Part shown: positions 24,783-49,559 of the stretch, one piece after another
How positions within the stretch are numbered: position 1 is the stretch's first letter
How the letters are laid out: each line of letters opens with the position of its first letter
Origin: Prorocentrum cordatum
Taxonomy: Eukaryota > Sar > Dinophyceae > Prorocentrales > Prorocentraceae
NCBI GenBank assembly: GCA_963575745.1
Contig: CAUYUJ010021170.1
Location: 178,801 to 242,800, forward strand
DNA length: 64,000 bases
Direction of reading: 5' to 3'
The notes under the pieces: model-generated
Told to the model about the DNA's origin: nothing
The model's database searches: none
Seen by the model: the letters and a program-made list of their open reading frames with translations, nothing else
Made by a program: the position numbers and the translations under genes

Positions 24783-24791
24783 GCCTTCGAT
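24783..24791. repeat. 9-bp target-site duplication, left
   Basis: GCCTTCGAT, identical to 49551-49559 and directly abutting the terminal inverted repeat. Confidence 0.92.
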
Positions 24792-25310
24792 TGGGGTGGC
24801 ACGTTCCCATTGCAAACGTGAAGCTTTTCGTCACGAGGGTGACGCCGCGCGCCCTCGTGACGAAGGCCCCTGTCACGAGGTCGGGCCCGCGGCCTCGTGA
24901 CAGGGAGCCTCGCCAGGCGTAGCGCGCCAACCTTATTCATATTCCATGCGATCATTATTCATATAGCGACCACCATATAATCATATCGAAATAAATATAA
25001 ACACGCGTGGTTGGATATGAATAATGCTGCCCCCACAAATACAAATATGCGCACTCTGATATGAATAATAATCCTCCCATGGATGCCACATATCGGATCG
25101 GTCGATATTCTGAGACGACCCCCGACATGCTGATTCATTGGAAGGTCCCCCATCGACCCCCCTGATCCTCCTCCTCCTCCTCCTCCTCCTCCTCCTCCTC
25201 CCTTCCTCCTCCGCCCGACGACGACAACGACGCGGGCCCGCCGCCGCCGGCCCGCCGCCGGCGCGCCGAGGGTGCTGCCAAGCGGCGGCAGCAGCGACGG
25301 CGGCGACGGC
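24792..25310. repeat. Left terminal inverted repeat of the giant transposon
   Basis: Inverted relative to 48990-49550. The first 13 bp are identical and the next about 130 bp nearly so, including two hairpins with arms TCACGAG/CTCGTGA. The AT-rich middle (24945-25130) is more diverged. The inner part has (TCC)n at 25165-25200 and a GCCGCCGCCGG-rich block. Confidence 0.9.
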
Positions 25311-25530
25311 GCGGCGGCGGCGAAAGCTTGAGCATTCTCTTAAGGTGGAGGGCTCAGGGTGAAATCCATATGGGCTTAGCGGCTTCACCTCGACAATCAA
25401 TCCGTCTTGTGGTTCACCTTTTGCAGATCCAAGCCTCAAAACCCGTCGAAACGGCATTTCAGATGTCAGCCTTTGCCCTCCACCCGAAGGAAACGCTCGG
25501 ACCCTCGGAAAGCGGCGGTGACGCCGACAA

Positions 25531-25587
<57 letters not shown>

Positions 25588-26384
25588 CGACGACGACGGC
25601 GGCGGCGACGGCGGCGGCGGCGGCGACCGACGACGACGACCGACGACGACGACGACGACCAGCGACGACGACCGCCGCCGACGACGATGACGAATCACGA
25701 ACGAACGACGAAGACACGCCGAGAGTGCCGCCGACGAGAGGGATCGGCGGCAGCGGCGACGGGCGGCGACGACGGCAACTAGGGCAACCATATTCGCGCT
25801 CCGCGTTCCGCGAAGCGCGATCTTCGCGCTTTCGCGCTTTCGCGCCGCCCCCGTCGCACCCTCGCGGCTGCCCTAGGGCCGTGGGGAAGGACGACCGACG
25901 ACGACGAGATGGATGACGGGAGGGAGGAGAGAGGATGGGGGAATTTCACGCTTCACCTATCTACTCAAATTCGTTCACATGGCCATATGGCCGTATGGCT
26001 CTGCGCCATGCGCGAGCTCCACGACATCGCCCCCCCCCCATGTCCCTCCACGGGGCTCTAAGGGGCGGGGGCTCCAGCATGCAGAGGCGCGTGGGGGGGG
26101 GCATGCACTCTGCCAAAAGAGACCTTGCCCACATGGTCGCGAGGCAGAGATCAGCCAGCACTAGCACTAGCCGGCAGCACTAGCCCCAGCGCCTCGAAAC
26201 TCGAAACTGAAACATCGGAAGGTTTGAATGTGCGCGAGGACCGCCCCCTCTACTCCCCCGTTGCTCTACGCACCTCTCCTCTCACCCCTCCCGCCCCTCG
26301 CCAGCAGAGCAGAGACCCATGCACCCATGCATGGCGACCTGCGGCGGGGAGGCGGGGCCGAGCCTGGCGAGCAAGCAAGCGCGC
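25310..26384. other. Transposon interior, (GAC)n-rich, no gene seen
   Basis: (GAC)n/(CGA)n runs at 25535-25690, a GCGCGATCTTCGCGC-type inverted block at 25812-25845, and unique DNA with no supported frame. Confidence 0.6.
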
Positions 26385-27173
26385 CTACTTGAGCAGGTGC
26401 GCGACTCTCGCACGGCCCTTCCCGCCGCCGCCCAGGCCACCTGAAGACGGACTCGCGCCGCTCAGTGCGAGCGCAGCGCATCCACCGAAAAACGTGCACG
26501 GGTCACTGGAGTCATCCGCGCGCTTGCGCTTCTTGCCCTTCCCGCTGCCCTTGCCGCCGTCGGCCTCCCCGCCGGCCTTCGCCACGTAGTATTTCAACTG
26601 CACGTCAGTCATGCCGACGAAGCCAGGCTTGGGGACCAGCACTGGCACTCGGATGCGAATCTTCGGTGGCTCAGCGCCGGCCGCCAGAGGCTGCTTCAGG
26701 AGCTTCGGCGGGCAGATGATATCGGCGTCCTCGTGCGCAAGCTGGAGCGTGGCATCTTCTGGCTTGGCGACTTGTTTCACGCTCCAGGCGGGCACGAAGC
26801 ATTCCGAGGCCAAATGACAGTTGAGACCCCCGTGAACATAGATCGGGATGCCCGCGATGTTGCCGACGCGGTGGGCCCCAACTGTCTCGGTGAAGGTGAT
26901 GGCGCCAGCGAAGTAGAGCTTGAGATTGGTGAGCAGCTGCGGCGCCACCACCGATGAAACCGATACCTTCTTGCCGTCATCAGTCCTCCTCACGAGGGCG
27001 ATCAGATCTTTCGTGCTGGCAGTAGCCTCAGACTCGATCACCGCCTCGAAGAGGGCCGCCTGGGCCTTCAAGGCGAGCACCTTGAGCGACGTGCTGTTGA
27101 CGTGGAACTTGGAATCAGCCACGAGCTGGCGGACATCCAGCTCTTCACCGCACTCGGACGTGACCTTCGCATC
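26385..27173 (-). CDS. Unrecognised transposon protein 6, last exon
   Basis: 262 residues from DAKVTSECGEELDVRQLV to a stop. It contains a helical region (LKVLALKAQAALFEAVIESE), a segment FAGAITFTETVGAHRVGNIAG, and a lysine-rich nuclear-localisation-like stretch (GKGSGKGKKRKR) near the C terminus. No family recognised. The acceptor is CCCGAG before GATGCG. The upstream intron 27174-27407 begins GACCGC, giving AG at the end and GA at both junctions; its 234-bp length leaves the frame open through it. Confidence 0.6.
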   Translation of the reverse strand, partial: DAKVTSECGEELDVRQLVADSKFHVNSTSLKVLALKAQAALFEAVIESEATASTKDLIALVRRTDDGKKVSVSSVVAPQLLTNLKLYFAGAITFTETVGAHRVGNIAGIPIYVHGGLNCHLASECFVPAWSVKQVAKPEDATLQLAHEDADIICPPKLLKQPLAAGAEPPKIRIRVPVLVPKPGFVGMTDVQLKYYVAKAGGEADGGKGSGKGKKRKRADDSSDPCTFFGGCAALALSGASPSSGGLGGGGKGRARVAHLLK

Positions 27174-27407
27174 CTCGGGACGGGCGAGGGGGGAAGGAGG
27201 ACGGAGGAGCCGAGGAGGAGGACGAGACATAGAGACATAGGGTTGCGAGAGGAGAGGAGAGGCCGAGGAGAAGCCAGGGGCCGAGGGGCCGCCGAGGGGG
27301 AGAGGAGGAGCCCAAGGAGGCGGACGGTAAGAGCGGTAGACTAAGGAGCAGGAGAGGGAGAGGGGGACGAGCAGGAGGAAAGGGGAGGGGGGGAGGCGGG
27401 CGCGGTC

Positions 27408-27635
27408 CGAAATGGACGCGGTGATCTGCGCCAGCTTCCACTGGACCTCGGCTCCGCACGCGAGCGGAGGGAGCGGAAGCGCGGCGGGGGCTTCGACGGC
27501 GACGAGCACGTCGCTGCCGCTCCCAGGCCCGCCGCTCGGCGCGCCTCCCGCCTGCGCCGCTGCCGGCGCCGCCCTGTCCTCCTCGGCCTTGGCCACCTCG
27601 GCCTTCCGCTTCGCCTCGGCGGCCGCGGCCTCGGC
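27408..27635 (-). CDS. Unrecognised transposon protein 6, middle exon
   Basis: 76 residues starting AEAAAAEAKRKAEVAKAEED, an Ala/Glu/Lys coiled-coil-like start, then a Gly/Ala linker and EVQWKLAQITASIS. The acceptor CCCCCCAG directly precedes GCC GAG. Upstream is an intron of TCC-rich DNA (27640-27860). Confidence 0.6.
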
Positions 27636-27639
27636 CTGG

Positions 27640-28090
27640 GGGGTCAGAGGAGCCCGGGAAGGTGAGGGGGAGGAGGAGGAGGAAGGAGGAAGGAGGAGGA
27701 GGGGAGAGGGAGAGGGGGGGAGGGAGGGAGGGAAGGCGAGGCGAGAAGAGGAGGGGTGAGGAGGAGGAGGAGGAGGAGGAGGAGGAGGAAACAGGAGAGG
27801 GATCAGAAGGTGAGAGGGAGGAGAGGAGGGGAGGAGGGGAGGAGCGGGGAAGAGGGTGGGAGGGAGCAGGAGAACTCTGAAAAATTACCAGCGGGAGAAA
27901 CTGCGTCCAGGTATTATATACCTGGCGTCGATATACATACCGATTGTGTCTGGCTCTTTCAGGCCCCAAAGCTGGGGGGGCCAGACGACCGCATGTCAGA
28001 TACCCCCCACTCCCCGTAGGTGGCCCGCAAACGTAAAGACACGAGAAGGAGAAGGAGAGAAGGATAAGGCACCCGCTCAGCAGCGACGAG
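27640..28090. repeat. (GGA)n tract in an intron of transposon protein 6
   Basis: GGA/GGGA repeats at 27660-27850 (TCC in the sense strand) followed by unique DNA. Confidence 0.75.
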
Positions 28091-28844: not shown

Positions 28845-31059
28845 TCATATTGAATAATTGTGGAGGAGGATGACGACCTTCCTGATCGCGATGGCCCAAG
28901 CGCGCGCCCAAATGTGCGACTGGTCCAGCAGGGGGTCGACGGTCGCCATCTTGTCCGCATTGGCGACAATGGCCTCGACCGCCTCGCAGAACGTGGCGGA
29001 CGGCATGCCCTCCACGCTGACCGCGTCGGGAACGAGATTCTCGAGGAGGTGGGCCGCGTAGTGGGTCCGGAGGCGCATCCACTTGCTCAAGTCGTCGAAG
29101 CAGCCGAAGGTATGCTTGGCCTCGTCCGGCAGAGACTGCGTCTGCGTTGAAATCGTGCAGAGCTTGAGCACGTTCTTAGTCCACTCGGCTGGGAAATTGG
29201 CGTCCACTGCATCGTAGACACTTTTCAGGATGTCAGCCAAGTCAACGGAGTCCGAAGGTTTCGCGGCATTCATATCTACACCTTGGTCACGAAGGAGCTT
29301 CTTGCCGTACTCAATTTTCGCAGCCTCAATGTAGCCCCAAGCAGACTCCATCATGTCAGCAGTAATCCTGTGCATCTTCACTGGCCTCGAAGGCTTGTTG
29401 GCTGACAGGTAATCCCTCAATGCAATGCCCTCGTAGTCATTCAGGTACTTCGTCACATCGGCTGTCAAGGCGTCGATCGCAGCATCGCCTGGCACCGCCT
29501 GTTGAGGGAGGCTCTCAGCGATGCTTAGCAAGGCCGTGGCTGAGTCGTAGGCCCCCTGCACGCCCGCACCGCCCATCACAGCATCCGCCAGCGAATCTTC
29601 CTCCCGCTTCAGGGCCAGATACATGACCCGCTTGAGCTCCAAGCGAAGCTCGGACCACTTCGTGTGTTCCTTGCCATTGAGCGTAACTGATTCCATCCAG
29701 GCAAACTCCAGGGCGTGGGAGACGACAAACTCGGCGGTCTTGCGCTTGTTCGTCTTGGAGGCCCGTCTGAACTGGCTGAAGGAGTGCTCTATCGCCGCAA
29801 CCAGGTCGTCGATCCAGAGTTTCTGGCGAGGCTCTGGAACCGCCTCATCGTCATCCAGGTCCTGGAAGTGAGCGTCGGGCACAAGCTGCAACTGCATGGC
29901 CTCCACCGCCATAGCGCACTCCCTGCCGCGCTTGCCGCCTGCCGCTCTCTTCGGATTCGCCGCTGGCTTGGCCTGGGCGGCTTTCTTCGGTTTCTTCACA
30001 GGCTTGTAAACCGCGCTGCCCTCCATCGCTGTCTTGATGACCTCCATCCTGTCGTTGTCGACTCCCTTGGGGAACACGAAGGGCGCGAACCTACAGCTGG
30101 GGTCCATTGGGCCTGACGACGTGGGCTTGTAAGGAGTGCAGAACTTGATCCCTTCTGTAATCAGCGCGGCCCTGATCTCAGGCTCGATTCCGATGCCAGC
30201 GCACGCCGACTCGACCGACGTCACGTAGGCATGCATGGCGGCGATCGCATTCCATTGGTTGAACCTGGCGTCGAGGAACTCGCAGTTCAGGTTGAGGTCC
30301 TTCTTCACCTGCTCGAAGACGTCGCACGGCTTCTTGCGCATCGAGTTGACGAGGGCCTTCAGATGCGCGAACGAGCTCCAGGAGTCCCCGTCCGGCCCGA
30401 GCAGCCTCGGGTAGTTCTCGGTGATCCAGTTCTTGTATTCCTTGTAATACTGGGCCGTGTTCGAAACTGGCTTCTCACCTGATTTCTGAATGGGCAGATC
30501 ACGCTGACCGCACTCCTCCTCGCCCTTACCCTTCCCCTTCTTGGGCTGGCGGGCTTTGATCTTGCACTGCTTCCTGTGAGCCTCCCAGCCGTCCTCCGCG
30601 GCGGCGCACTTGTCCATCATCTGGACGCAGGTCATGCCAGAGCCTTGGTTGTGGAAATCGTTCGACAGATCGACGATCCACGTCAACACGTCGATCGGAG
30701 TCTTCTGTTTGAAGATGGTGAGGCCCGTTACCCCGCGCTTGATCGTGTGGTCCACAAATTTGTTGGTGCCTGGCTTGTTGCGCTTACTAGCGCGATACAC
30801 TGCCGCTGTGAGGTGGCCCCAGCTCAGCATCTTGAATGGCGCCGATCCAGGAGCGGCATCGACCTTCACTGCCCACGGGTGGCCGCGAACACCACTCACG
30901 TAACCCCGCGTCTCGATGCTGACGGTGTTTTTTTTCCACGGTCTGCTCTTGGGTCTCCCGGTTGGCGGGGTGAGGCTCGATCATGGGGTTGCCATCCTTG
31001 TCGAAGTAGGGGGCGTGGCTATCAGCGCTCGGCATCGAGTACGCCTTCCACACAGCTTC
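28845..31059 (-). CDS. Unrecognised transposon protein 5, main exon (one-base frameshift)
   Basis: After the acceptor GCGCAG the frame reads EAVWKAYSMPSADSHAPYFD, then EKK at an A8 run (30928-30935) where one extra A shifts the frame. Dropping one base gives continuity (TVEKNTVSIETRGYVSG), followed by about 684 residues to a stop at 28845. Parts: WGHLTAAVYRASKRNK, TPIDVLTWIVDLSNDFHNQG, a basic GKGKGEEE linker, a nuclear-localisation-like KKPKKAAQAK, then a largely helical C-terminal half (ATALLSIAESLPQQAVPG). Proteins of this look are common in dinoflagellate predictions, but I know no function. The A8 shift could be a sequencing slip or real decay. Confidence 0.7.
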
Positions 31060-32704: not shown

Positions 32705-34816
32705 TCACGCTGGCTCGGACCGAGCGCGCGTGACCTGGCCGACCGCCGCTGCGACCACGCGCGCGGCCAAACTCTCGCTCACTGTGTTCACGAAAGCCAG
32801 GCGCCAACATTCGATCGCGCCTACCACGTTCACGTGCATAGCATTCCCCGCTTGGCAGAATGTCTGCGCGTAGCTCCTATCGGGGCAGCTGGCGTGGAAA
32901 CTCGTCGACGGGCTCGCCCGGCCCGCGGCGATGTCATCGAAGCTAGCAGTAGTGACGGGGAAACCTAAGGCGGCGAGCACCTCCTTTGCCGTCATGACTC
33001 TGTCCCTGAACCACATCATCCCACAGTGCTTGGTGACCGTGCACAAGTTACCCTCGCTGCTCATGGACGTGAAGTCGTCGCAGTCCTGGTTGAGCTGGAA
33101 CACTGCGTTGGTGCCGTGATTGCGCTCGTAACGGCCGAGGTTCTCGCGCTCGAACGGCGACAGGAGGCCCCTCAGGTCCGAGACGGTAAGTTTCCCAGGA
33201 GGGACATCCCAATGGTTCTTCCTCGCCCTGTCAGCGGCGAACTCCACCAGGTCGGCGAGGTCCGCATCTGTAGCCCAAAACCAAATGGAGAACGTGCATT
33301 GGCGGTCTCTGTGGAACAGCCTGGTGATCGTAGACACCGGTAGCACAGTGAACACCGCGGCCTTTGTCAACGTCATGACTCGAAACATGCGAGTCCGCCT
33401 CGCGGGAACCCCGAACTGGATGGGGGACAGCTCTTGCTCGGAGATTGCGTAGTGCTCATTGAAGCAGGCTTGGAGGAGGTCAAGCATGCACTGCTTCACG
33501 TTCTCGTGAATGATAGTCGGTACGAGGAGAAGCAGGCAAAGTCCCACCCAAGCCATGAAGTGTTCTATGGAATCGTCCTCCTCGCCACGCCCGAGCCCGA
33601 CAGGGGAGAAGCCGACGCATGGTGGGCCTGCCCACATGACGTCCACCCTTGTCACGGAGCACTCTTTATCATGAATACAGCAGTACGCCGAAGGTTTGAC
33701 GGCCTTCCTAGTCTTGATCGCTGGGAGAAGCTTCCTGACGCCGATGATCTCACCAGAGTCCTTCATCCTGCCCAGCTCACGCCTGAACTCGGGAACGTAG
33801 AAGTCGCTCATGTCGGCGAACAGGCATCTTGGCCGACATGGATGGCAGAGAAGCTCTTGTTGCGCGTGAGCATCCCATTCGATTGCCCAGTGGTGGGCGG
33901 GCTTGCAGATCTTGGTGCCAAGGTGACGCTCAAGCTCCTGCCGCAACATCTCCCTGGCGACTCCAGGTGAGTCAATGCCCGAGAAGGCAGTGGCATGGCG
34001 CTCGGTCTCGAGGGCTGTTGCCATCTTCTGCACGCGAGCTCTGCCGTGGACCTCTTCGATCCTCAGGATGTTGTAGCGGGCCCAGTCGTACGCATCCTTC
34101 AGCTCCCTGACAGTGTAGAGGTCCGCCGCCGTCACTGCTGCCTGCTGCGGCTGAGGCGCTGACGCGGGCGGCACGCTGGCTGCGGCCCCAGCCGTCGCGG
34201 CCGCCGCGGCCGACGGCGAATCTCCGGGGGGGTGCTGCGGAAGAGGTGGCGGATCGGCCAGGCCAGTGACCAGGCCGTGCATGACTGCGGCCTCCGTGCT
34301 CGCCGCTCGGGAGAGGAGCTGTTCCATATCGGAGTCGCTGGGCGAGCTTGCAGACACCGCCTCCTCATCCACTGGCGCGCCACCATATCCATCTAGCACA
34401 GAAGGAGGGCTGACCTTCCCAGCCGCCGCACACAACGTCTCCAACTCTTCGTCTGCAACATCATCCTCAATGACGGGCTCCACCCGCGTACGCTTCCGGA
34501 GGGGGGCGCCGGGGCGCCGACCAAGGCCGATATCGCCATCAGAATGCATGGCAGAACTCTCCCGCTTCATGGCCTCGATTCTCTCGCGTCGATCCCCCCT
34601 GCTATCCCGCAGGGCGGAAAGGGCCGCATCAGATGCCGCCGCCTCGCCTGATCCAGCGCGCTCCTCCCGCGGGGGCGGGGGCGCCTCATCCTCAGCAGCA
34701 TCCGTCCGCAGTGCCAGCTGCGTTGGTGGTGGTGGCACCTGCGGCGCCTGCTCCAGCTCCGGCGTCGCGGCTGAGGCCGCCGACGCCGACGTCGACGCGG
34801 AGGCCGCCGCGTCGAC
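32705..34816 (-). CDS. C5 cytosine DNA methyltransferase carried by the giant transposon
   Basis: 703 residues in this exon. A low-complexity Ala/Pro/Glu N-terminal part contains a nuclear-localisation-like RKRTRVEP. The catalytic domain has the C5 motifs in order: ATAFSGIDSPGVAREML (motif I, F-x-G-x-D), DVMWAGPPCVGFSPVGLG (motif IV with the Pro-Cys nucleophile), TIIHENVKQCM (motif VI, ENV), QFGVPARRTRMFRV (motif VIII, R-x-R-like) and FCQAGNAMHVNVVGAIECW (motif X, G-N-A-x-x-x-N-V). The frame is open and all key residues are present, so activity is plausible. There is no BAH, RFTS, chromodomain or SNF2 part. The acceptor CGCCAG precedes GTC GAC. It lies between the transposase-like gene and unknown protein 5. 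Confidence 0.9.
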   Translation of the reverse strand, partial: VDAAASASTSASAASAATPELEQAPQVPPPPTQLALRTDAAEDEAPPPPREERAGSGEAAASDAALSALRDSRGDRRERIEAMKRESSAMHSDGDIGLGRRPGAPLRKRTRVEPVIEDDVADEELETLCAAAGKVSPPSVLDGYGGAPVDEEAVSASSPSDSDMEQLLSRAASTEAAVMHGLVTGLADPPPLPQHPPGDSPSAAAAATAGAAASVPPASAPQPQQAAVTAADLYTVRELKDAYDWARYNILRIEEVHGRARVQKMATALETERHATAFSGIDSPGVAREMLRQELERHLGTKICKPAHHWAIEWDAHAQQELLCHPCRPRCLFADMSDFYVPEFRRELGRMKDSGEIIGVRKLLPAIKTRKAVKPSAYCCIHDKECSVTRVDVMWAGPPCVGFSPVGLGRGEEDDSIEHFMAWVGLCLLLLVPTIIHENVKQCMLDLLQACFNEHYAISEQELSPIQFGVPARRTRMFRVMTLTKAAVFTVLPVSTITRLFHRDRQCTFSIWFWATDADLADLVEFAADRARKNHWDVPPGKLTVSDLRGLLSPFERENLGRYERNHGTNAVFQLNQDCDDFTSMSSEGNLCTVTKHCGMMWFRDRVMTAKEVLAALGFPVTTASFDDIAAGRASPSTSFHASCPDRSYAQTFCQAGNAMHVNVVGAIECWRLAFVNTVSESLAARVVAAAVGQVTRARSEPA

Positions 34817-35246
34817 CTGGCGAGGGGCGGGGAAGGAGGAGGAGGAGGAGGAGGAGGAGGAGGAGGAGGAGGGGGCAGGTGGGCACAGGAGGAGGAGTCT
34901 GAGAGAGGATGGAGGAGGAGAAGGCGGGGCGGAGGGAAGGAGGAGGGGGCGACGACGACGAGCGGAGAAACATACTTCTCGCATGATCCCCTCGTATGGC
35001 CCCCTCATCTGCCCCACCCGCATGGTCACATGGCCCCCTCGCATGCCCCCCCGCACGCTCCCCCCGCATGGCCCCCTCGCACGGTCTCGCGGAGACCGGC
35101 CCCCACAAGGCCAACGCACACGCATGGGCGAAGTAGGACCGTTCGGCAACCCCTCATTCTGAAGATAGTAGGGGGGTATTAGGGTATTAGGAGGAGGGGG
35201 TGGAGAAAGCGCGAGGGTGAAAGCATGGGGCGTTGGCATCCCGGAG
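34817..35246 (-). other. Intron of the methyltransferase gene (approximate)
   Basis: In frame throughout, but the translation is low-complexity (poly-Ser, Arg/Gly) and includes (TCC)n plus a GCATGGCCCCCTCGC-type repeat. The acceptor AG at 34818-34817 is clear; the donor near 35246 (GGCGCG|GTCTCC) is a guess. Confidence 0.5.
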
Positions 35247-35824
35247 ACCGCGCCACTCGGCGGCCGAGGCGGGAATGCGATAACAGGCTGGCCGAATTTG
35301 AGCAGCGAGCGGTTGAAGGACGCGGCATGCATGCCGTACTTGGCCAGGTTCAACCCCCGGAACCCGCCCTGCTTTGCCATTGTGATCGGCGAGCTCGTGT
35401 TGGTCAAACGCACCTTCGAAAACCGCCACAGGATAAGGGGATCAGGCCACGCGTCACCAGGCAACAGAGTCGGCAGCACAGTAGAGCTACCCGTATGTGC
35501 AGGAAGCGGACCATCACCGTGCCACTCCGATATGGCGAAGATGTGGAAAACAGAGAAACTTGCGTTCGGGTCAGGGCGGGCCAATATAACTGGTTTACCG
35601 ACTCGGTTGACGCCTTGCTTAGCCCACGGGACCAAAGAGGAAACGCTGATGTGCTCACTGCACGCGGTGTGAGCTAAAAGCAAGTCCACCACATCGGCTC
35701 GCATGAGTATGACGTGCACATCTTTCGGCATTGTCTCCAGCTCAGATTTCACCTCATCTTGGGAGAGGTGGATCTCTGGGTCAGAATGCGTCTTGCCTCG
35801 CAACCGGCGCGTCGGAGTACCCAT
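35247..35824 (-). CDS. Methyltransferase gene, 5' exon
   Basis: About 193 residues from MGTPTRRLRGKTHSDPEIHL. It contains EVKSELETMPKDVHVILMRA, HTACSEHISVSSLVPWAKQG, FSVFHIFAISEWHGDGPLPA and WRFSKVRLTNTSSPITMAKQ. No domain recognised. In-phase with the catalytic exon after removal of 34817-35246. The frame is also open to 35875. Confidence 0.6.
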
Positions 35825-37840: not shown

Positions 37841-38773
37841 GACATCTGCCACTGGCTTTGCCTGCGCAGCTGTCACCAGTGGCCCCCGAGGGCCACTGGC
37901 CGTGCCCCAGGTGAGCCCCCGCCCCAGAACGGGGAAACAGATGGGGAGGGGTCAGGGCGACAACCTCCTCCCTCAAGAAAACGCAGGGAGCCATCGCGCG
38001 TGCATCGCGCCTTCCCCCACAAAATGGGGTGCCTGACACACGTGCACGCAGCCCACGCGCAGCGCACACAAACGAGCAAGCCCTCGACCTGGCGAACGAA
38101 CGCCAGGACTATGACAGACAAAGAGGCTGAGCAAGGCAACTGTCAGGGCGACGAGCCCCCGTGCCAGGCCCACGCGGCATGCTCGCGGTGACCTCCTTCC
38201 CAGGAGACCTAACATTGGCCAGGGGCAAAAGAAACGAAACTCGAGGACAGAACACACAAAAAAAAACGACCACCCACACGCGGCCGACGAGGACAGCCGC
38301 CCCAGGTGCAAATAGCGCCAGGACGGCGGCGCGCCTCGCCCCAGATGCGGGGCATGCACACTGAAAACTGCCCTGGGGTCCGTCCCACCGGGCCTTAAAA
38401 GGGCGACGCCAGGACGACAGCCAGGACACCCCAGGTGTACCCAACCCTGAGGGCGGACGCCTGGACGGCCCCTGGACTGCCCCAGGTGTGGGCCCATCTC
38501 GCACCCTGAGCCAGTGCCCACATGGCGGGCCCTCCAGACGGCGACGAGATAAGAATGGGAGGCCGCGGTCGGGCCACCATGACCCCCGCCCTCGCCCAAG
38601 AAGTGGGGCATGGCACGTGACGGGGGGGGAGGGGCGTCCGTCGCGAGGGGGCGCGTGACGGGAGGGTTTCGTCACGATGGGGGGCTCGTGACGAAGGGGG
38701 AGGTCCGTCGCGAGGAGGCTCGTGGCGGGGGGGGGTCTGCCACGAGGGAACTCGTGACGTGATGATATGTTGT

Positions 38774-39832: not shown

Positions 39833-40969
39833 TCACCTTGGACCCCGTGGTCCGCGGTACCACTGCACGCAGAGTGCACAGGCCCCTGCGGCTGACACAA
39901 AGAACTCCATGGGAACAAATCCAACTGCCAAGTCAGCCACGGCCGCGCGCGCAGCCAATGTTGTGTCTGGCCCCCCCTGGCCGAGCGCACAGCCTGCTGC
40001 CGCGCGGGCGCAAGCACCGTGCCACGTGCACATGCATAGAGGGCATGCGACAATCTCATCGCCCTCGCCAGACTCACAAAGCACACAGGACTTATCAATC
40101 GAGACTGTCCGTGATATTGCGGCCGACCACATATCCTCCAGCTTCACAATATCAGGTGGGATCACCGGCCTGACCTTCACGTGGTTGATGCATTTGGGAA
40201 CTTTGGCCATCGAGATCCCGATCGCTGGGTGAATGATTACGGCATTCGCGAATGAGCGAAGCTTCGTCAGAGTCACGGAGTACTTGATCCTCTTGACGTC
40301 CTCGTCGTCGTCGTCGACCACTGCCTCCCGCCCCCATCTGGCGCCAGCGTCCTGCCAGTGAACATACATGAGGGTATCTGGGTTGCCCCGCGTCTGGACC
40401 AACGATAGGAAGCCATTGTTGCCAAGAGGGATGGACATCGCGTCCTCCCGGTCGTGCAGGATCGCAATGCAGTCCAGTAACCCAGTCGACCAAATGGCGT
40501 GCCACGCTGGGTTGGAATCATCACCATCAGCTGGATCAGGCTCTGGCGGATCCGACGGAGGCGGCGGGGGCCCTGGGGTCTCCGGCCCCAGCAGAGTATC
40601 CAGGGCGAGCTCGTCTCGCACTTCCTCGATGTTGACCGCGACGCCTGACATCTCCAGCGCCTTCTTGGCCAACGCGTCTGGATCGGCGTGGAAGTTCTTG
40701 AACTCCGCCCCCTTCTTCGCCTTTTGCATCTCATGATGTGCCCCAGCAGCGCCGAAGATGTCGTCCTCGCTATCGGAGCCATCAATCTCGGCATCGCGAC
40801 GGCCAACAGCCTCTGCAAGTTTCCGCATGCCCTCCGAGTCAAGCATGGCCTCATCCAAACCGCCGCCGTCGCCATCCAAGGCGGCTACCGCTGCAGCCAC
40901 GGCCGCTTCGGCTCCCCCCTCGTCGCCGCCGCCGATCGTGAGCGCCGCCGCAAGCGCGTCCAATACGTC
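39833..40969 (-). CDS. Transposase-like gene, last exon with PHD-like zinc finger
   Basis: 378 residues. It begins DVLDALAAALTIGGGDEGG, with an acidic Ala-rich first third, then a proline-rich linker and a globular part (LDCIAILHDREDAMSIPLGN). Near the end, SCVLCESGEGDEIVACPLCM continues to CTWHGAC and, after a loop, ACALCVQW. This spacing (C-x2-C, C-x2-C, H-x2-C, C-x2-C) is PHD-finger-like. The acceptor AACAG|GACGTA pairs with donor CAG|GACAGG of the previous exon. A GT donor could also lie just before the stop. Confidence 0.7.
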   Translation of the reverse strand, partial: DVLDALAAALTIGGGDEGGAEAAVAAAVAALDGDGGGLDEAMLDSEGMRKLAEAVGRRDAEIDGSDSEDDIFGAAGAHHEMQKAKKGAEFKNFHADPDALAKKALEMSGVAVNIEEVRDELALDTLLGPETPGPPPPPSDPPEPDPADGDDSNPAWHAIWSTGLLDCIAILHDREDAMSIPLGNNGFLSLVQTRGNPDTLMYVHWQDAGARWGREAVVDDDDEDVKRIKYSVTLTKLRSFANAVIIHPAIGISMAKVPKCINHVKVRPVIPPDIVKLEDMWSAAISRTVSIDKSCVLCESGEGDEIVACPLCMCTWHGACARAAAGCALGQGGPDTTLAARAAVADLAVGFVPMEFFVSAAGACALCVQWYRGPRGPR

Positions 40970-41262
40970 CTGTTGGGCGAGCGAGAGGCCAGGGGGGGAT
41001 CGCACCCCCTGGTGCGCCTCCCTTCATCACCCTCACCGCCATCATTCCTCCTCCTCCGAGCTCCTCCGAGCTCCGCCTCATCCGCCTCCCCTCCTCCTTC
41101 AAAGATGGAGGGGGGCGAGGTGGCCAGACGCCCTGGGCTCAAGGACCATCGGGCCCTCGGGATCTGCCTCGCCCCTCGACTCGAACCCCCGAACCCCTAG
41201 GGCCCCTCGGGCCCTTGGACCCTCCCTCCATGGGCCCATGGACCCATGGATATTGCCCTGTC
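40970..41262 (-). other. 293-bp GA-AG intron of the transposase-like gene
   Basis: Starts GACAGG after CAG and ends AACAG before GACGTA; phase 0; the five bases AG|GAC occur at both junctions. Confidence 0.75.
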
Positions 41263-42969
41263 CTGGTCGAACTTCCGCGCGCCCTCCACGGCGCCCGGGT
41301 CGCCGACGGCGGCGCCGTCCCCAGCAGCGGCGTCCGCGCCGCCAACGCCTCCAGCCACTGCTGCAGCCGCAGCGGCCCCGAACGCGGCGTCGCCCGGCTT
41401 CTTCTTGGGCTTGGGCTTCACCAGTGACACCACGCGCTCGGGCTCTCCGACACGAGCAAGGGGCACGGGGGAATCTTTGACCCACGTCAAGGGGTATTTC
41501 CACAGCGGGAGCTCCAGGCCATCAATATGCTCGGGCCCGCCGTCGAAGTAGCAATATTTGTCAGCAATGACGTCGGCCATCAACTCGGACTGCATCGGAA
41601 GGATAATTCGCATCATGTCCGGCGGCCCCTCGCGAGGGCGGAACTTCTCGCCAACCACCGTCCACGCGGTGTAGCGATGCTTGTCGCACGGGATGCACAA
41701 GTCGTCGTCGATCCCGAAGCCGAAGGCTATATCAACAGTCGGTTGCTTACACTCTGCGTGCACTTTCAGCGCGTAGGGCGCGGCAAATAACGATGCTGGG
41801 GTCAGCGTCGCGTAAGGGTTGATCTTGGCCATGCCCTCAGTCATGTCTTTGGCCGAAGGAGGGACGCACGTCTTCACTGGCGGGGCGTAGCGAACGGCGC
41901 TGGCAGAGCACACGTCGTTGGCGATCGTGGCGTGTCGAGTCAGCGAGCCCGCCAATAGCGCGGCCGTCTTTTTACGCTGGTGCCACTTCATGCCCAAGTC
42001 CAGATACCCCAAAGTGAACTTTAGGCGTGCCCGAGCATCCAGCAGCTCCATGGTCATGGAGGGTGCCTTATTCATCTCAACCTTAAGTAGGCTGTTGATG
42101 CCCTCGTTGAACTGAACGTCAGCCTTGATGATGCGGCCGGCCAAGCGCAGCGCGCAGAACAACTCGCGCCCCAGCTTCCCAGTGTTCGCCGCGTGAACCA
42201 ACGCCGCACGGTGCTGTCGGACAGTCTTCGCAGTATTTATCTCCAAGCCAGCTTCGTCACTATTAATCATCTCCCAGGCGACCTGCGCGCGGACGTCGCA
42301 AACCACGTCGGCCTCGGAGTAGACAAGGAGGAACATCTTCATCGGGTATCTGGACACCGGCAGGACGACGCGCCTGAAAAACGCAGACGCGTAATGAAAC
42401 ATAAGAAGAAGCCCGCCCTTGAACAAGTGCATTGCGTCGGCCTCGGGCATCCTGTCCGCAATATCCTGGAGCCACGTGATGTCGCGGGCAAGCTCGTCAA
42501 ACTTCACAGCGAATTTGAGCGCCACCCCTGTCGCTAACTGGGTCACGTGGCCCCCCTGCTCGCGCATCACCTCGCCGGGGACCGCCTTCGCGATCCAGAA
42601 TATGAACTCATGCACTGGCTCATGCAGCTTATGGGCGACGGCGCCGAGGGCGCCGAAGAAGGGGTCCGCCGCCACCTCCAGCGCATCGTTCCTCCACCTG
42701 CCGAGCCGGGCTCTGAACGAAGCCACCTCCTCAAGTCGGGGCTCTTCACGGAGGGCGGCATCGCCAGCGTCGTCCGCCGCCGCAGTCTTCTTCCCCAATG
42801 CCTTCGTCAGCGCCTGGAGCAGCTGGCCATTAAGGAGCGGAGGTAGGATTGTGGTCTCTGAGCCGTACACAGAACCCCATCGGCCCGATAGACACCTCGG
42901 CGGCAAGCGCCTCGCGTACTTCTGCGCGTCAGGGCCGCTGACAGCAGACTTCCACGCCAGGAACATGTC
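41263..42969 (-). CDS. Transposase-like gene, third exon
   Basis: 569 residues beginning DMFLAWKSAVSGPDAQKYAR, then RLPPRCLSGRWGSVYGSE, a long helical region (RWRNDALEVAADPFFGALGA, HYASAFFRRVVLPVSRYPMK), and a C-terminal part with FGFGIDDDLCIPCDKHRYTA and a basic KPKPKKKPG tail. It continues the transposase-like domain of the previous exon. The third catalytic acidic residue cannot be assigned by eye. Joined by the 185-bp GA-AG intron upstream and the 293-bp GA-AG intron downstream, both phase 0. Confidence 0.75.
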
Positions 42970-43154: not shown

Positions 43155-43691
43155 CTTCCCGAGATCTCGCCAGACGTTGACGATCTTCGCGAGGCTCCCG
43201 AAATATTTGTATGTGCGGCCCGATTGCGTCAGGATTGCGTCGCATATGGACAGGCCCGATTTCACCATCAAGTGAGGGCTGTGCATAAAACAATCAAAAG
43301 ACCACACTTGAATTCGATCGTACTCAAGCACCTGGTATTGAATGATCTTCTTAGCCTTGGCCTCGTCTGAGCCCTGATCAGATGTCAAGAAGTAATAGAA
43401 CGTCCTCGTGCTCTTGGGGTCCGTGTCGATCTCTTTCATGACCATGGACCAGTCGGGGGCTCCTGTGCTGCGCATCTGCTTCTGGATCATGTCGACTGTC
43501 CCCGGGCCAGTGCCATCAACGACAATCTGCAAGTCAGCGAAATCCCTCCTCCACGCGTAGTCATCATCGGACACATCATCATCCCAGCACTTGTACACGG
43601 ACTCAACGAATAAGTTGTGCACCTTGCACCCCCCCATGATGGCGGCGTTGGTGGCGTCGCCGCACACGGCGAACATTGCGAACCCATTCCT
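43155..43691 (-). CDS. Transposase-like gene, second exon (D, D, C-x2-H motifs)
   Basis: 179 residues beginning RNGFAMFAVCGDATNAAIMG. The motifs are LQIVVDGTGPGTVDMIQKQM (first Asp, DGT-like), FYYFLTSDQGSDEAKAKKII (second Asp) and VWSFDCFMHSPHLMVKSGL (C-x2-H). Two acidic residues followed by C-x2-H is the hallmark of RNase-H-fold transposases of the MULE, hAT and KDZ groups. I therefore infer this is the transposase of the surrounding element. The acceptor CTTCACAG precedes AGG AAT. A 176-bp MITE lies in the upstream intron. Confidence 0.72.
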
Positions 43692-44012: not shown

Positions 44013-44720
44013 TTAAAGGCGAGGTGGGCGCGGTCGGCGCGGTCCGAAGAAGGAGGCAGAGGAGCACAGGAGGAGGGGATCATGTAAGGCTGTCCTTGGC
44101 CCGTCGTCGTCGCGCATGGCGCGGGGCATCGAGTCCCCGAGAGAGGAGGCAGCAGACAGGGAAGACGCGGACGAGGCACGGCCCAAGCTGCCGAGGCCGA
44201 TGCTGCCGAGGGTGCACACGCTGAGCCCGGAGACGGAGCTCGAGCTGCCCTGGCTCTCGCCACTCCCGCCGGCAGTGGTGGGCCCCGGGAAGATCCACCA
44301 CGGGTTGTGCTCCTGGCTGAGGGCCGAATCGCCTTGGGCGAGGGCGGGCAACCTCGCGCCATTCCAGCTCTCTTCCACGCGCGCTACATCACGCGTGAAA
44401 GCAAGCTGGCCTGGCACGCGGCTTGTTCGGCATCGTCCAGGGCGGCCGCGAGGGGGGCGGGAGGGGTTCACCCTCGGGTCCTGGTGGTACCACAAGCTAG
44501 ATGTCACCATGGCGCCATTGCTCCTGTGCTCCCAGCGGCGCACGGTCGGGCGGGACACGTCGTCGAGGATGACCCCGCACATGTTGCGCCCGGCCACGTT
44601 GCCGAGGCACCTCCGGATCGCAAGGGCAATGCCAGTCCTGGCGTTGAACCGCCGCTTCTCCCCGCGGTCTGGCGTGAGCAGCGCCAACTGAGCGTCCGCC
44701 TCGACGGGGACGATGGCCGC
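44013..44720 (-). CDS. Transposase-like gene, first visible exon (HTH-like)
   Basis: After CTCTGAG the sense strand reads AAIVPVEADAQLALLTPDRG, EKRRFNARTGIALAIRRCLG and VILDDVSRPTVRRWEHRSNG. The last two suggest a helix-turn-helix that could bind the inverted repeats. A Ser-rich tail (GSSSSVSGLSVCTLGSIGLG) follows and may be partly intron. The frame is open to 44013 but the real 3' splice boundary is unknown. Confidence 0.55.
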   Translation of the reverse strand, partial: AAIVPVEADAQLALLTPDRGEKRRFNARTGIALAIRRCLGNVAGRNMCGVILDDVSRPTVRRWEHRSNGAMVTSSLWYHQDPRVNPSRPPRGRPGRCRTSRVPGQLAFTRDVARVEESWNGARLPALAQGDSALSQEHNPWWIFPGPTTAGGSGESQGSSSSVSGLSVCTLGSIGLGSLGRASSASSLSAASSLGDSMPRAMRDDDGPRTALHDPLLLCSSASFFGPRRPRPPRL

Positions 44721-45660: not shown

Positions 45661-46057
45661 TCGTCAACGCGTCGACGTCGACGGGCGGCGGGAGGGGCAT
45701 CGGCGCGGCCGCCGTCGCCGGGGCCTCGAACTCCACGGCGTGCTCGCGCACCCGACGCATGGCCGCCGTCCACTGGGCCTCCGGGATGAGCACCCCAAAC
45801 TCGCGCAGCAGGACCCCCACGGCCTCGGCCCGCACCCACTCGGGCCCGCGAGCAGACGCCACCCCCGCTTGGGCCGTGCCGCGGCGGCATGCTCGCGTCG
45901 CCCGGCCAGCCACCATGCGGGCCCTGCGCGGATCCACGACGTCCCCGAACGCGGTCGAGATCTCCCCGAGGCGCGCGACAGGGATATCCACGGACTCGCC
46001 AGGCCCGCGAGCAGCGCCAGGACACAGGAAGAGGTACAATCGTTGAAAAATGTCCAT
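45640..46057 (-). CDS. Unrecognised transposon protein 2, first exon (MDIFQ)
   Basis: About 139 residues from MDIFQRLYLFLCPGAARGPG. It includes VDIPVARLGEISTAFGDVVD, a helix AVGVLLREFGVLIPEAQWTA and VREHAVEFEAPATAAAP before the TCC-rich intron. No family recognised. A Met 15 codons upstream is in frame. The GCGATCGA(G/A)CC sequence occurs at both ends of the following TCC tract, so the splice site is ambiguous. Confidence 0.55.
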
Positions 46058-47134
46058 AGTGTGCGAGCTTGGCTTGTCACAAACGGCTACGCTCGGCAAC
46101 AACGGGCGACGACGAACGTGCGGCTATCTTCGCGCCGAGGCATCCACCCGCGAAGCACGATTATCTTCGCTTAGTTTCGCTCATCTTAGCCCCCCCCAGG
46201 GAGACGATTATTTTCTTCACCGTCTTCGCGCTCCGCTTGGCCCTCTTTCTCTTTTCGGGCTGCGGCGGCATCGGCTCCTCCATCCTCCATCCTCTTGACC
46301 TCCTTCACCTTCTGCGCCTCCTTCACTCTCTTCACTCTCTTCGAAGAGGGTGAAGAGAATGAAGAGAGTGAAGAGGGCGGCGGCGGCGTTATACGAGATA
46401 TCAGCGCTGCTCTGGCGTTATACGAGTGGCAGCCGCTCTGCGGTTGATCGGGGGTTTGTGCATATACAGTGCGCACATGTGTCCAGCTCTCCCTTCCCCC
46501 CCCCTCCCATCCCCCTCATCCCCTCCCCGCCGTCGCTGCTGCCGCGTCTCCCTCTTCGGATGGCGGCGCCTGTGGCGCGCCCTTGGCGGGCCAGACGGCG
46601 GTCGATCGATCGACGACGATGGCGATGACGGCGATGGCGATAACGCTATGTCGGCGATGGCGATGCGATGGCGATGACGGCGATGACATGACGATGATGA
46701 GGTGACGATCGACGATAGGTGGCGATGCTGATGCTGACGATGTGGCGGACCGAATCTCATCTCCCCGTGCGAACGGCGAACAACAGCTATCCGAACCGAA
46801 CGTTCGAAATATCCTACGCGCGTCTATACAAACAAAAATAACGCCAACCCCTCGGAACTCAAGGACTCTAAGACGGCTCCAGGGGCTGAGGGAGAGAGCA
46901 GGCACCTTCTGCTCTGAGACGTGCCAGAGTCGAGTGTCAGTCAGACCAGCGCGGCGCACCCCGCAACGTCGTGGCTGGCAGGGATGATGTTAATTGGCAG
47001 CGGCGGTATCGCCAAATCATGACAGACCCCATATCCCTCCCTTTCCTCCCTATCCTCCTGGTCGATCCTCCCCTTCCCTCCTCCTCCTTGAAGCCACTAT
47101 GGCTAAATTACAAACAGGCGTGAGATCTTAAGTC
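46058..47134. other. Transposon spacer with hairpin and duplicated inner-TIR block
   Basis: Contains an inverted repeat at 46317-46376, a block at 46525-46600 matching the inner part of the right terminal inverted repeat (CTGCCGCGTCTCCCTCTTCG), and GCGATGACG-type repeats at 46610-46740. No supported gene. Confidence 0.65.
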
Positions 47135-48213: not shown

Positions 48214-48356
48214 AGTGCCTCAAAGCTCGGGTCGGGCGAAAGGGGGGATAGCAAAGGGGGGGGTGAGAATCAGCTCACGCACGGTAGGTTCGCGTCGCGT
48301 CGACCGGCGGCGACCCCGCCAGCGGCGTTCAATTTTGAAGGCCGCGGGCGACCCAC

Positions 48357-48420
48357 AATCGTTCGATGTGGAACGATTTGGACGTTTCGGAAACGGCCGA
48401 TCGTTCAAGGTTGAACGATC
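48357..48420. other. Two adjacent short palindromes
   Basis: AATCGTTC-6 bp-GAACGATT at 48357-48378 and GATCGTTCAA-GG-TTGAACGATC at 48399-48420, sharing the core ATCGTTC. They could be binding sites near the transposon end. Confidence 0.6.
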
Positions 48421-48625
48421 CCCGCGGTGTCAGAAACCAACGCCGAAGTCGGCACGACACGGACCTGCCGTAGCTGATTTTCCCGGCGCCTCACGGCGCC
48501 GGGAGGCGCCCATGCATCGAGGAATGGGCCCCTCGGTCGGGCCGAAACCAGCTGCATGCAGCAGATTTCGCAACCCCCCCTTTCCCAAACCCCCCCGTTC
48601 GCCCGACCCGAAAAGCCGCCCTGGG

Positions 48626-48643
48626 GAGCCCAAATGGCTACGG
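48626..48643 (-). other. Spliced-leader-like relic
   Basis: The minus strand reads CCGTAGCCATTTGGGCTC, matching the first 18 bases of the dinoflagellate spliced leader except one (T to G at position 13); the last three bases do not match. Too short for an SL RNA gene, as no snRNA body is seen. Confidence 0.5.
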
Positions 48644-48714
48644 CGACGGCGACGAGCGCTCCTCCTCTCCTCCTGTTCCTCCTCTCCCCCTTCTCCTCGT
48701 CCTCCACCTCACTC

Positions 48715-48800
48715 CTCCCAACCCCTCCTGCTGCTCCCCCGCCCCCTCCTCCTCCTCCTCCGCCTCCTCCTCCTCCTCCTTCTCCTCCTCGTCCTCCTTT
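48715..48800. repeat. (TCC)n tract
   Basis: TCC repeats with CCG interruptions. Confidence 0.85.
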
Positions 48801-48989
48801 ACCCTTGTTCGGAGCCCGGCGACTTGAGACACCGACAGTTCGAAATCTGATCAAAATCGGTCCCTGGACCCCTCGGGGGATCCCAACGACTTGATTTGTC
48901 ACATTGCGTCCAGCCGTGGCGACGAGGGGTTCCCCCGAAGGCCAACTCCCAACGTCTCAAACGGCCCTCCCCTGACGTGTGCCGCCGTT

Positions 48990-49550
48990 GCTGCCGCATC
49001 TCCCTCTTCGGATGGCGGCGCCCTCGGAGCGACGGCGGCGGGCCGGCGGCGGCGAGCCCGCGTCGTCGTCGTCGCCGCCGGGTGGAGGAGGAGGGCGGGG
49101 GAGGAGGAGGAGGAGGAGGCCTCTCCAATGTTTCAGAATGTCGGGCGCCTCAGAACATCGATCGGTCCGAGATGTGGCATCCTCGTTTTCATATATGGGA
49201 AGAGTACTACTCACATTACCGCGCGCATGTATTTATTTATGGTGGTGATATTATTCATATACACACGATATGTATTTATAGATGTCGCTATATGGAAATA
49301 TGGGGGCGACATATGAATAACCATCGAATGGAATATGACGAATATGACTAATGATGTTTCCATATGCGCACATATGACTCTGCTTCCATGGCGCATATAT
49401 TTAGGGCGCGCGCGCGCTAATCCTGGCGAGGCGCTCTGTCACGAGGCCACGGGCCCGACCTCGTGACAGAGGCCTTCGTCACGAGGGCGCGCGGCGTCAC
49501 CCTCGTGACGGGGTCGGCTTCACCCCTGAGGGGGTGTACGTGCCACCCCA
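48990..49550. repeat. Right terminal inverted repeat of the giant transposon
   Basis: Ends ...ACGTGCCACCCCA at 49550, the inverted counterpart of the left end. Carries the same pair of TCACGAG/CTCGTGA hairpins (49438-49513), the AT-rich part (49180-49410) and the (GGA)n plus GCCGCCGGCGG part (49020-49120). Confidence 0.9.
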
Positions 49551-49559
49551 GCCTTCGAT
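49551..49559. repeat. 9-bp target-site duplication, right
   Basis: GCCTTCGAT, identical to 24783-24791. Confidence 0.92.

What the first reader, a model, noticed from the sequence alone, without database searches (positions are those of the whole stretch)
24783..49559. 24.8-kb DNA transposon with long TIRs and a 9-bp target duplication
Seen: TGGGGTGGCACGT at 24792 and its reverse complement ending at 49550, inverted homology continuing for about 0.5 kb, and GCCTTCGAT immediately outside both ends. At least six genes lie inside, all on the minus strand. A TIR element this large, with a methyltransferase and several accessory genes and nested cleanly in one intron, is unusual for eukaryotic cut-and-paste elements.
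Basis: partly seen in the sequence, partly recalled or inferred. Interest (0 to 1): 0.95.

Follow-up and report, generated by a model that had tools for sequence, protein, structure and literature searches.

The report
Giant DNA transposon carrying a methyltransferase
In the genome of a bloom-forming dinoflagellate alga there is a 25-kb jumping gene whose kind makes a 9-base duplication where it lands, has several near-identical copies and many distant relatives, and carries, besides its own mover enzyme, a gene for a DNA-methylating type of enzyme and a private array of mirror-image DNA sites.

Summary
Window 24792-49550 (24,759 bp) is bounded by ~0.54-kb terminal inverted repeats (85% identical) and by GCCTTCGAT on both sides. 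Four other close copies, two with both ends, lie in the same 4.13-Gb assembly (Prorocentrum cordatum). A second insertion of the family shows GCTCAAGAC, read across two contigs. Two distant elements, 18.1 and 16.6 kb (transposase 26-28% identical), have their own 9-bp duplications, GTCATGACA and GTCAAGTAC.

The "six genes" are mostly exons of about three genes in a conserved order: a probable DDE transposase with a PHD/RING-like finger, a C5-cytosine methyltransferase, and a large protein of unknown fold. Their co-linearity in the genome is far above chance. Between transposase and methyltransferase all three elements examined have an array of ~20-bp palindromes (period ~31 bp in the two distant ones, irregular in the window). 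Exact matches to each lineage's palindrome (16, 24 and 20 in the genome) all lie in that lineage's copies.

No Pfam transposase model matches, so superfamily membership is open. Best reading: an autonomous-looking giant DNA transposon lineage with its own methyltransferase. My searches found no description of it. The aminotransferase-intron claim is not verified.

The parts
24783..24791 (.). 9-bp target site duplication, left copy (GCCTTCGAT)
   Evidence: identical 9-mer at 49551-49559
24792..25332 (+). left terminal inverted repeat, starts TGGGGTGGCACGT; holds 4 CTCGTGAC motifs as two hairpin pairs (24830-24901)
   Evidence: alignment; motif positions; 4 further left ends printed as 100%
26388..27884 (-). 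499-aa stop-to-stop frame; its conserved part is probably the 3' exon of the third gene
   Evidence: 67-aa match (33%, E 9.8e-6) to C13706, where it lies in one 1310-aa ORF with the 711-aa homologue
28848..30980 (-). 711-aa ORF (third gene; annotated model P0001, 731 aa); function unknown, ParB-like N-terminal part is only a by-eye lead
   Evidence: 86 matching rows in the genome; P0001; no hit for it in Pfam, NCBIfam, PHROGs or PDB
32708..35875 (-). 1056-aa ORF; C-terminal ~480 aa (from about 34138) are a C5-cytosine methyltransferase with motifs I (33985-33962), IV (33628-33605), VI (33508-33491), VIII (33409-33383), X (32848-32825)
   Evidence: PF00145 E 4.5e-6, 26.7 bits, above its cut-off of 22; phrog_116 8.6e-16; TIGR00675 2.8e-5, below its cut-off; PDB 9hgm and 1g55, Dnmt2 type; motif places
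36236..38758 (.). palindrome array (GTCACGAGGGGGCTCGTGAC and degenerate variants; 20 CTCGTGAC), main part 36236-37238, directly 5' of the methyltransferase ORF
39836..41023 (-). C-terminal part of the transposase gene with PHD/RING-like CxxC-CxxC-HxxC-CxxC finger (40087-40010, 39880-39857)
   Evidence: Prok-RING_1 E 0.0015, below cut-off; same cysteine pattern in P0003 C-terminus (BLASTP E 0.003) and in C13706 (E 3.6e-4)
41200..42969 (-). transposase exon with RCLSGRWGS (42897-42871) and third acidic residue in NEGINSLLK (42108-42082)
43155..43676 (-). transposase exon with GDATNA (43661-43638), SDQGSD (43382-43362), DCFMH (43295-43272); followed by a predicted GA-AG intron 43154-42970
44529..44651 (-). 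upstream transposase exon (FNARTGIALAIRRCLGN...)
   Evidence: tblastn P0002 163-203, 49% over 41 aa, E 1.5e-4
45668..46060 (-). possible first exon of the transposase gene (weak)
   Evidence: kept in C21544 at 76% over 150 aa; likeness to P0002-P0004 N-termini judged by eye only
48955..49550 (-). right terminal inverted repeat, ends ACGTGCCACCCCA; holds 4 CTCGTGAC motifs (49438-49509)
49551..49559 (.). 9-bp target site duplication, right copy (GCCTTCGAT)

Best explanation
This is one copy of a giant, autonomous-looking DNA transposon of the dinoflagellate Prorocentrum cordatum, from a lineage that has diversified in this genome. SHOWN: TIR-bounded unit, 9-bp duplications in four insertions of three lineages, near-identical copies, a conserved gene order transposase (with PHD/RING-like finger) - palindrome array - C5 methyltransferase - third protein, and palindromes whose exact form is private to each lineage. 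INFERRED: the transposase is an RNase H-like DDE enzyme (D in DA[TS]N, D in [ST]DxGxD, E in EG[IL]N) that binds the TIRs, excises the element and joins it at 9-bp staggered cuts. INFERRED, less sure: the palindromes, whose motif in the window family also makes up the TIR hairpins, are binding sites of an element-encoded protein (transposase or third protein) and act as operator for the methyltransferase gene and/or as internal sites that help assemble the transposition complex; the methyltransferase marks the element's own DNA (or new copies), to tune its silencing or to let the transposase tell self from host.
For: Ends, duplication and copies. Second insertion GCTCAAGAC on C4492 left and C645/C3152 right; joining these flanks restores a flanking tandem-repeat unit across the junction (score 106; left alone 92; right alone 44; shuffle maximum 43). 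C13706 element 284456-302536: TIR TGAGGATGGTCCTCC, duplication GTCATGACA; its left edge is exactly where 93% homology to C15400 starts. C19288 element 379735-396309: right edge set by three other copies ending within 3 bp of each other, duplication GTCAAGTAC found once in 13.4 kb, with 25 of 40 in-register TIR matches. Co-linearity outside the window family: transposase-methyltransferase 12 pairs within 30 kb (11 same strand, all 11 downstream) against 0.085 expected; methyltransferase-711 14 of 14 same strand and downstream against 0.074; transposase-711 5 of 5 against 0.06. Methyltransferase motifs I, IV, VI kept in the C19288 and C13706 homologues. Palindromes private to each lineage, exact matches; motif confined to the element within the window. 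No stop codon in those of 7 coding stretches that each copy covers.
Against: No transposase family model matches: Pfam at E<=10 for P0002, P0003, P0004 and the C13706 and C19288 ORFs (HMMER drops most hits above 0.1), Pfam at E<=0.1 for the window's own 698-aa ORF, NCBIfam and PHROGs for P0002-P0004, PDB profile. The AlphaFold model is useless (pLDDT 37), so the DDE reading rests on conserved motifs in six sequences, one of which does not cover the first motif. On C4492 and C3152 the two flanks of the same contig do not share a 9-mer; I read this as exchange or assembly switch between near-identical copies, not proven. Differences between young copies show no purifying selection (transposase exon 2, C4492: 1 synonymous, 11 nonsynonymous, neutral ratio about 3.1), and C3152 has 14 indel bases in transposase exon 1. 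The search for an empty window site found no clean unoccupied copy. The best PDB matches of the methyltransferase are Dnmt2-type enzymes (tRNA methyltransferase; E 4.9e-5 and 1.2e-4), so an RNA substrate is not excluded. Expression and enzyme activity were not tested. The TIR likeness of the two distant elements alone hardly exceeds shuffles (34 against 32, both).
Confidence: 0.85

Rival explanations
1. It is a very divergent Mutator-like element (MULE) rather than a lineage of its own: MULEs make about 9-bp duplications, often have long TIRs and can carry extra genes (partly recalled).
For: 9-bp duplication in four insertions and a 0.54-kb TIR in the window family; the order of acidic residues with a [DN]CxxH after the second one resembles MULE and hAT enzymes (recalled, no call).
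Against: No MULE model (Pfam MULE or Transposase_mut) among the Pfam results for the transposases; TIRs of the two distant elements are short; gene content is conserved in order, not a random capture.
Confidence: 0.25
2. It is an endogenous virus or Polinton-like element with TIRs.
For: Size, TIRs and several genes are in the range of such elements. One plus-strand ORF has a weak hit to a phage integrase N-terminal domain (Phage_int_SAM_1, E 0.0012) and one minus-strand ORF to a baculovirus envelope protein (ODV-E18, E 0.027); not followed up, and chance hits of this size are possible in 154 scans.
Against: No capsid, DNA polymerase, packaging ATPase or rve-type integrase model in the families listed at E<=0.05 for 87 of 103 minus-strand ORFs (>=70 aa) and 67 of 76 plus-strand ORFs (>=100 aa); 9-bp duplication instead of the 5-6 bp recalled for Polintons; gene order centred on a transposase.
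Confidence: 0.04
3. The array upstream of the methyltransferase is only a promoter, operator or terminator repeat of that gene and has no role in transposition.
For: It lies immediately 5' of the methyltransferase in all three elements examined, as an operator would; in the two distant elements the array motif is not among the listed 8-mers shared with the ends; the window version is irregular and embedded in G-rich DNA.
Against: In the window family the same motif builds the TIR hairpins.
Confidence: 0.4
4. Two short insertions flank ordinary host genes.
For: None beyond the possibility.
Against: Same interior between same ends on C20321, C4492 and C3152; one duplication shared by both outer edges.
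Confidence: 0.01

Closest known systems
DNMT-encoding retrotransposons of Symbiodinium (SymbioLINE-Dnmt, SymbioDIRS-Dnmt3; PMC5890265, passages read)
   Same: mobile elements of dinoflagellates that carry a C5 cytosine methyltransferase
   Different: those are LINE or DIRS retrotransposons with reverse transcriptase; here no reverse transcriptase model was listed, ends are TIRs with a 9-bp duplication, and a transposase and palindrome array accompany the enzyme
DNA transposons encoding a DNMT in marine viruses (one sentence in PMC5890265 citing its reference 16; source not read)
   Same: a DNA transposon with a DNMT
   Different: reported from viruses; their structure was not seen, so the degree of likeness is unknown
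TET/JBP-encoding DNA transposons of fungi (Dileera, Kyakuja, hAT7, IS3EU, PHISTA, EnSpm, Plavaka, Helitron; PMC12730594, passages read)
   Same: DNA transposons with an accessory gene that edits cytosine methylation
   Different: they carry a demethylation-side enzyme; the duplications given in the passages read are 8 bp or shorter; other transposases
Mutator-like elements (MULEs)
   Same: 9-bp duplication (recalled) and long TIRs (abstract start of PMC3310237 in the listing)
   Different: no MULE transposase model match; fixed set of about three genes
hAT superfamily
   Same: order D - D - CxxH - RW - E (recalled)
   Different: 8-bp duplication is usual (PMC12730594, passage), and no hAT model match
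Polintons and Polinton-like viruses
   Same: large TIR elements in protists
   Different: no DNA polymerase, capsid or rve-integrase model listed

Membership tests
DNA transposon with TIRs (class II, cut-and-paste type) | terminal inverted repeats bounding a repeated unit | tested here: met
DNA transposon with TIRs (class II, cut-and-paste type) | fixed-length target site duplication in independent insertions | tested here: met
   9 bp in four insertions, one of them read across contigs; against: 2 contigs whose own two flanks do not match
DNA transposon with TIRs (class II, cut-and-paste type) | transposase with DDE/RNase H core | tested here: inconclusive
   conserved acidic motifs in the sequences compared; no family model match; structure model failed
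DNA transposon with TIRs (class II, cut-and-paste type) | excision and reintegration | not testable with these tools
   needs a transposition assay or unoccupied alleles in other strains
MULE | duplication of 8-11 bp (recalled) | tested here: met
   9 bp
MULE | MULE-type transposase domain | tested here: not met
   no Pfam MULE or Transposase_mut hit; a very divergent domain would be missed
hAT | usual 8-bp duplication | tested here: not met
   9 bp in all four; hAT groups with 5-7 bp are known (PMC12730594, passage), so length alone is not final
hAT | hAT transposase/dimerisation domain | tested here: not met
   no such hit
KDZ (Kyakuja-Dileera-Zisupton) | KDZ transposase model | tested here: not met
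   no such hit
Polinton / Polinton-like virus | DNA polymerase B, rve integrase, capsid genes | tested here: not met
   not among families listed at E<=0.05 for 154 ORFs; one weak Phage_int_SAM_1 hit, E 0.0012, not followed up
C5 cytosine methyltransferase | motifs I, IV (PC), VI (ENV), VIII, X and PF00145 above cut-off | tested here: met
   (motif names recalled)
C5 cytosine methyltransferase | activity, and DNA rather than tRNA as substrate | not testable with these tools
   needs expression; closest PDB sequences are Dnmt2 type
ParB (third protein) | ParB N-terminal domain | tested here: inconclusive
   likeness by eye only; no Pfam or PDB hit; structure model failed

The most novel reading that the evidence does not exclude
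A dinoflagellate transposon superfamily that carries its own chromatin kit: a transposase with a chromatin-reading finger, a self-methylating enzyme, and a ParB-like protein that spreads on a private palindrome array (phased at about 31 bp, three helical turns, in the two distant elements), giving each lineage a self-recognition or centromere-like address that evolves together with its binding protein.
Probability: 0.12. Interest if true: 0.96.

Novelty: new variant of a known kind. Interest (0 to 1): 0.85.

Why it matters
Dinoflagellates have huge genomes, and Symbiodinium has most of its genome methylated at CG (PMC5890265, abstract as shown). A conserved, expanded DNA-transposon lineage that carries a C5 methyltransferase is a plausible source of both transposition and methylation activity, and would be the writing-side mirror image of the TET-carrying fungal transposons. 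The lineage-private palindrome arrays suggest a directly testable protein-DNA recognition pair, and the 9-bp duplication with an unclassified transposase suggests an undescribed transposase group.

Tried and rejected
Structure prediction of the transposase relative P0002 (5-row alignment, pLDDT 37) and of the 711-aa protein (2-row alignment, pLDDT 33) failed; I ran no fold search on them because low-confidence models give meaningless matches. Protein database searches gave few relatives (1 for the 711-aa ORF, which is its own annotated model; 1 for the transposase; 3 rows including the query for P0002); the candidate lists were capped at about 8,000, so this is not evidence of rarity. PDB profile searches gave only chance-level hits. 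The viral-contig search with the transposase alignment did not run (no usable conserved stretch). Phage records gave no match to the 1056-aa ORF. The empty site of the window was searched with joined flanks: only the window's own two halves match fully; other copies of a dispersed repeat match the left flank, a few running 2-21 bases past the junction, too little to call an empty site. Synonymous and nonsynonymous differences among young copies gave no sign of purifying selection. The diverged C21544 copy (83-87%) showed no clear third-position excess and has no methyltransferase or 711 match in the part read; treated as decayed or rearranged. In one search I used 65 of the 86 rows (the 21 left out are further matches at loci already counted) and all 73 and 89 rows. 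All three lists are best-match lists, the expectation assumes uniform scatter over 4.128 Gb, and some contigs may be duplicates of one locus, so pair counts are not independent events.

A looser edit-distance count of palindromes undercounted units compared; I used it only to note that spacing in the window array is irregular.


Full report
WHAT IS THERE. The inverted repeats align over 541 and 595 bases with 419 identities in 492 aligned columns, far above shuffles. GCCTTCGAT lies directly outside both ends. The element is 24,759 bp (24792-49550).

HOST. The window lies on contig C20321 of a 4.13-Gb, 21,875-contig assembly. The 21-base core of the dinoflagellate spliced leader (recalled) occurs 14,218 times in it and its reversed control 0 times. 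The 711-aa ORF of the element is 98% identical to a Prorocentrum cordatum protein on a contig of 81,744 bases, the length of contig C3152. The published assembly has 4.15 Gb in 22,724 scaffolds (PMC10666404, passages read), close to but not identical with the numbers here.

COPIES. The left TIR finds 5 left ends printed as 100% including the window's, and right ends on C20321, C4492 and C3152, plus diverged ends on C21544 and C225. C4492 (24.5 kb) and C3152 (24.9 kb) are full-length; main aligned pieces are 96.3-99.4% and 94.7-99.7% identical. C645 starts inside the element (98.3-99.6%, one 472-base piece 87%); C2841 keeps the left end up to window position 31467 (95.8-99.3%) and then departs. 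No stop codon was found in those of seven coding stretches that each copy covers; C645 and C2841 do not cover all. Against autonomy of every copy: C3152 has 14 indel bases in a transposase exon and 63 in the 26388-27200 stretch.

DUPLICATIONS. Window: GCCTTCGAT twice. C4492 and C3152 do not have matching 9-mers on their own two sides, but the right-end flank of C4492 and the left-end flanks of C3152 and C645 all read GCTCAAGAC; C3152 and C645 are identical over 744 of 744 bases there. Joining the C4492 flank to the C645 flank restores a unit of a tandem repeat that continues in the flank, as expected for one insertion whose two sides were separated by exchange or assembly switch among near-identical copies. 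The other outer 9-mers (CCTCTGACC, TCCTTCCCC, GGCCTATCC) do not match one another and have no partner among the ends compared.

DISTANT RELATIVES. Two elements found by protein similarity (transposase 25.8% and 27.9% identical in tblastn) were delimited. C13706: 284456-302536, 18,081 bp, 15 identical terminal bases, duplication GTCATGACA; 93% DNA homology to another contig (C15400) begins exactly at the left end. C19288: 379735-396309, 16,575 bp; homology of C19144 and C8896 (99%) ends at the same base and of C6646 (91%) 3 bases later, which sets the right end; the 9-mer next to it, GTCAAGTAC, occurs once in the 13.4 kb held on the other side, followed in register by TIR-like sequence, 25 of 40 identities. 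Taken alone the short TIRs of these two are weak (34 against a shuffle maximum of 32); the edges and 9-mers carry the case.

GENES. The genome-wide protein searches gave 73 rows for the transposase exon (3,229 first-look candidates), 89 for the methyltransferase domain and 86 for the 711-aa ORF. Outside the window family these fall together in the window's order and strand: transposase then methyltransferase 12 pairs within 30 kb (11 same strand and downstream; C18141 is on opposite strands), methyltransferase then 711 14 of 14, transposase then 711 5 of 5, each against fewer than 0.1 expected (limits of this count are in Tried and rejected). The transposase is multi-exon in the window: exons at 44651-44529, 43676-43155 and 42969-41200 are supported by similarity, with a predicted GA-AG intron. 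One relative from public data, P0003 (1404 aa), has the transposase and the finger in one chain. In C13706 the 711-aa homologue and the homologue of the 26388-27884 frame are one 1310-aa ORF. So there are about three conserved genes, not six.

TRANSPOSASE. In the window, C13706, P0002, P0003 and P0004 a DA[TS]N motif recurs (the C19288 ORF printed does not cover it); in all six [ST]DxGxD, [DN]CxxH, [RK]C(x)3RWG and EG[IL]N recur. I infer an RNase H-like DDE enzyme. No Pfam, NCBIfam, PHROGs or PDB hit supports a named superfamily and the structure model failed.

METHYLTRANSFERASE. PF00145 above its cut-off, Dnmt2-type enzymes as best PDB hits (E 4.9e-5, 1.2e-4; HhaI only at 0.19 and above), and motifs I, IV, VI, VIII and X in place. 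Motifs I, IV and VI recur in C19288 and C13706. Because Dnmt2 enzymes methylate tRNA, a DNA substrate is likely but not shown.

PALINDROME ARRAYS. CTCGTGAC occurs 28 times in the 64-kb window (expected 2.7, largest of 100 shuffles 7), and all 28 are inside the element: 4 in each TIR as hairpin pairs and 20 between transposase and methyltransferase genes. The C13706 element has, at the same place, 19 units of GTCGGGACTCAGTCCCGAC (up to 3 substitutions), start to start 30-33 bases. The C19288 element has GTGGGGACTCCAGTTCCCAC and variants in a 31-base periodicity. In the window the spacing is irregular. Exact genome counts: GTCGGGACTCAGTCCCGAC 24 (8 each on C13706, C3414, C15400), GTGGGGACTCCAGTTCCCAC 20 (6 each on C19288, C8896, C19144 and 2 on C6646), GTCACGAGGGGGCTCGTGAC 16 (C3152 8, C4492 4, C645 3, window 1); reversed controls 0 in all three. 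These contigs carry the same lineage by other evidence too: C15400 by end homology, C3414 by transposase and 711 rows, C8896, C19144 and C6646 by end homology. So 3 of 3 lineages examined have their own array, and its exact unit was found nowhere else. In the distant elements the array motif is not among the listed 8-mers shared between ends and interior, so the shared TIR-array motif is shown for the window family only.

HOW IT MAY WORK. Shown: mobile unit, fixed 9-bp duplication, conserved module, private arrays. Inferred: transposase acts on TIRs. Guess with support from position only: the array is bound by an element protein and controls the methyltransferase gene or complex assembly. A ParB-like reading of the third protein is a by-eye lead that no tool supported.

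LITERATURE. Searches of the held library brought up no description of a DNA transposon with a C5 methyltransferase in a dinoflagellate, nor, in the listings and passages seen, of these arrays, for which I made no separate search; most subscription papers are not held. Closest are DNMT retrotransposons (PMC5890265, passages, which also cites DNA transposons with a DNMT in marine viruses, source not read) and TET/JBP DNA transposons in fungi (PMC12730594, passages).

VERDICT. A real, large, multi-copy DNA transposon and part of a diversified lineage; a new variant of a known kind, possibly a new superfamily. Membership in MULE, hAT or KDZ is not supported by the tests made.

Noticed in passing
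window 24592-24791 (left flank): The left flank belongs to a dispersed repeat (70-79% identity, 38 other contigs in the best-candidate list) into which the element inserted.
   Followed up: no
L026, L029 (C21544:258560-): Diverged relative (83-87%) that keeps the right end, transposase and finger regions, but shows no methyltransferase or 711 match in the part read; looks decayed or rearranged.
   Followed up: partly
L028 (C225:981296-981599): TIR fragments without DNA match to the window interior in the stretch compared.
   Followed up: no
window 28217-28876: Stretch that recurs at 73-82% in several places of the C21544 copy, outside the matching order: perhaps a smaller repeat nested in the elements.
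   Followed up: no
L024 position 7520 (C2841): Copy breaks off at window coordinate 31467 into unrelated sequence: truncated, interrupted or misassembled.
   Followed up: no
C4492 and C3152 copies: Flanks look exchanged between insertions: either ectopic recombination between giant transposons or an assembly switch.
   Followed up: partly
window 42970-43154: Predicted intron of the transposase gene with GA-AG ends and a pyrimidine-rich body.
   Followed up: no
window 36790-36880: Very long G run inside the element, within the palindrome array.
   Followed up: no
window, one plus-strand ORF inside the element: Weak Pfam hit to a phage integrase N-terminal domain (Phage_int_SAM_1, E 0.0012); ORF not identified.
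   Followed up: no
window flanks: A class-III aminotransferase fragment (PF00202, E 7.1e-6) in one of 103 flank ORFs; not located.
   Followed up: partly
C18141:176382-188663: A transposase and a methyltransferase match 11 kb apart but on opposite strands, the only exception among 12 pairs.
   Followed up: no
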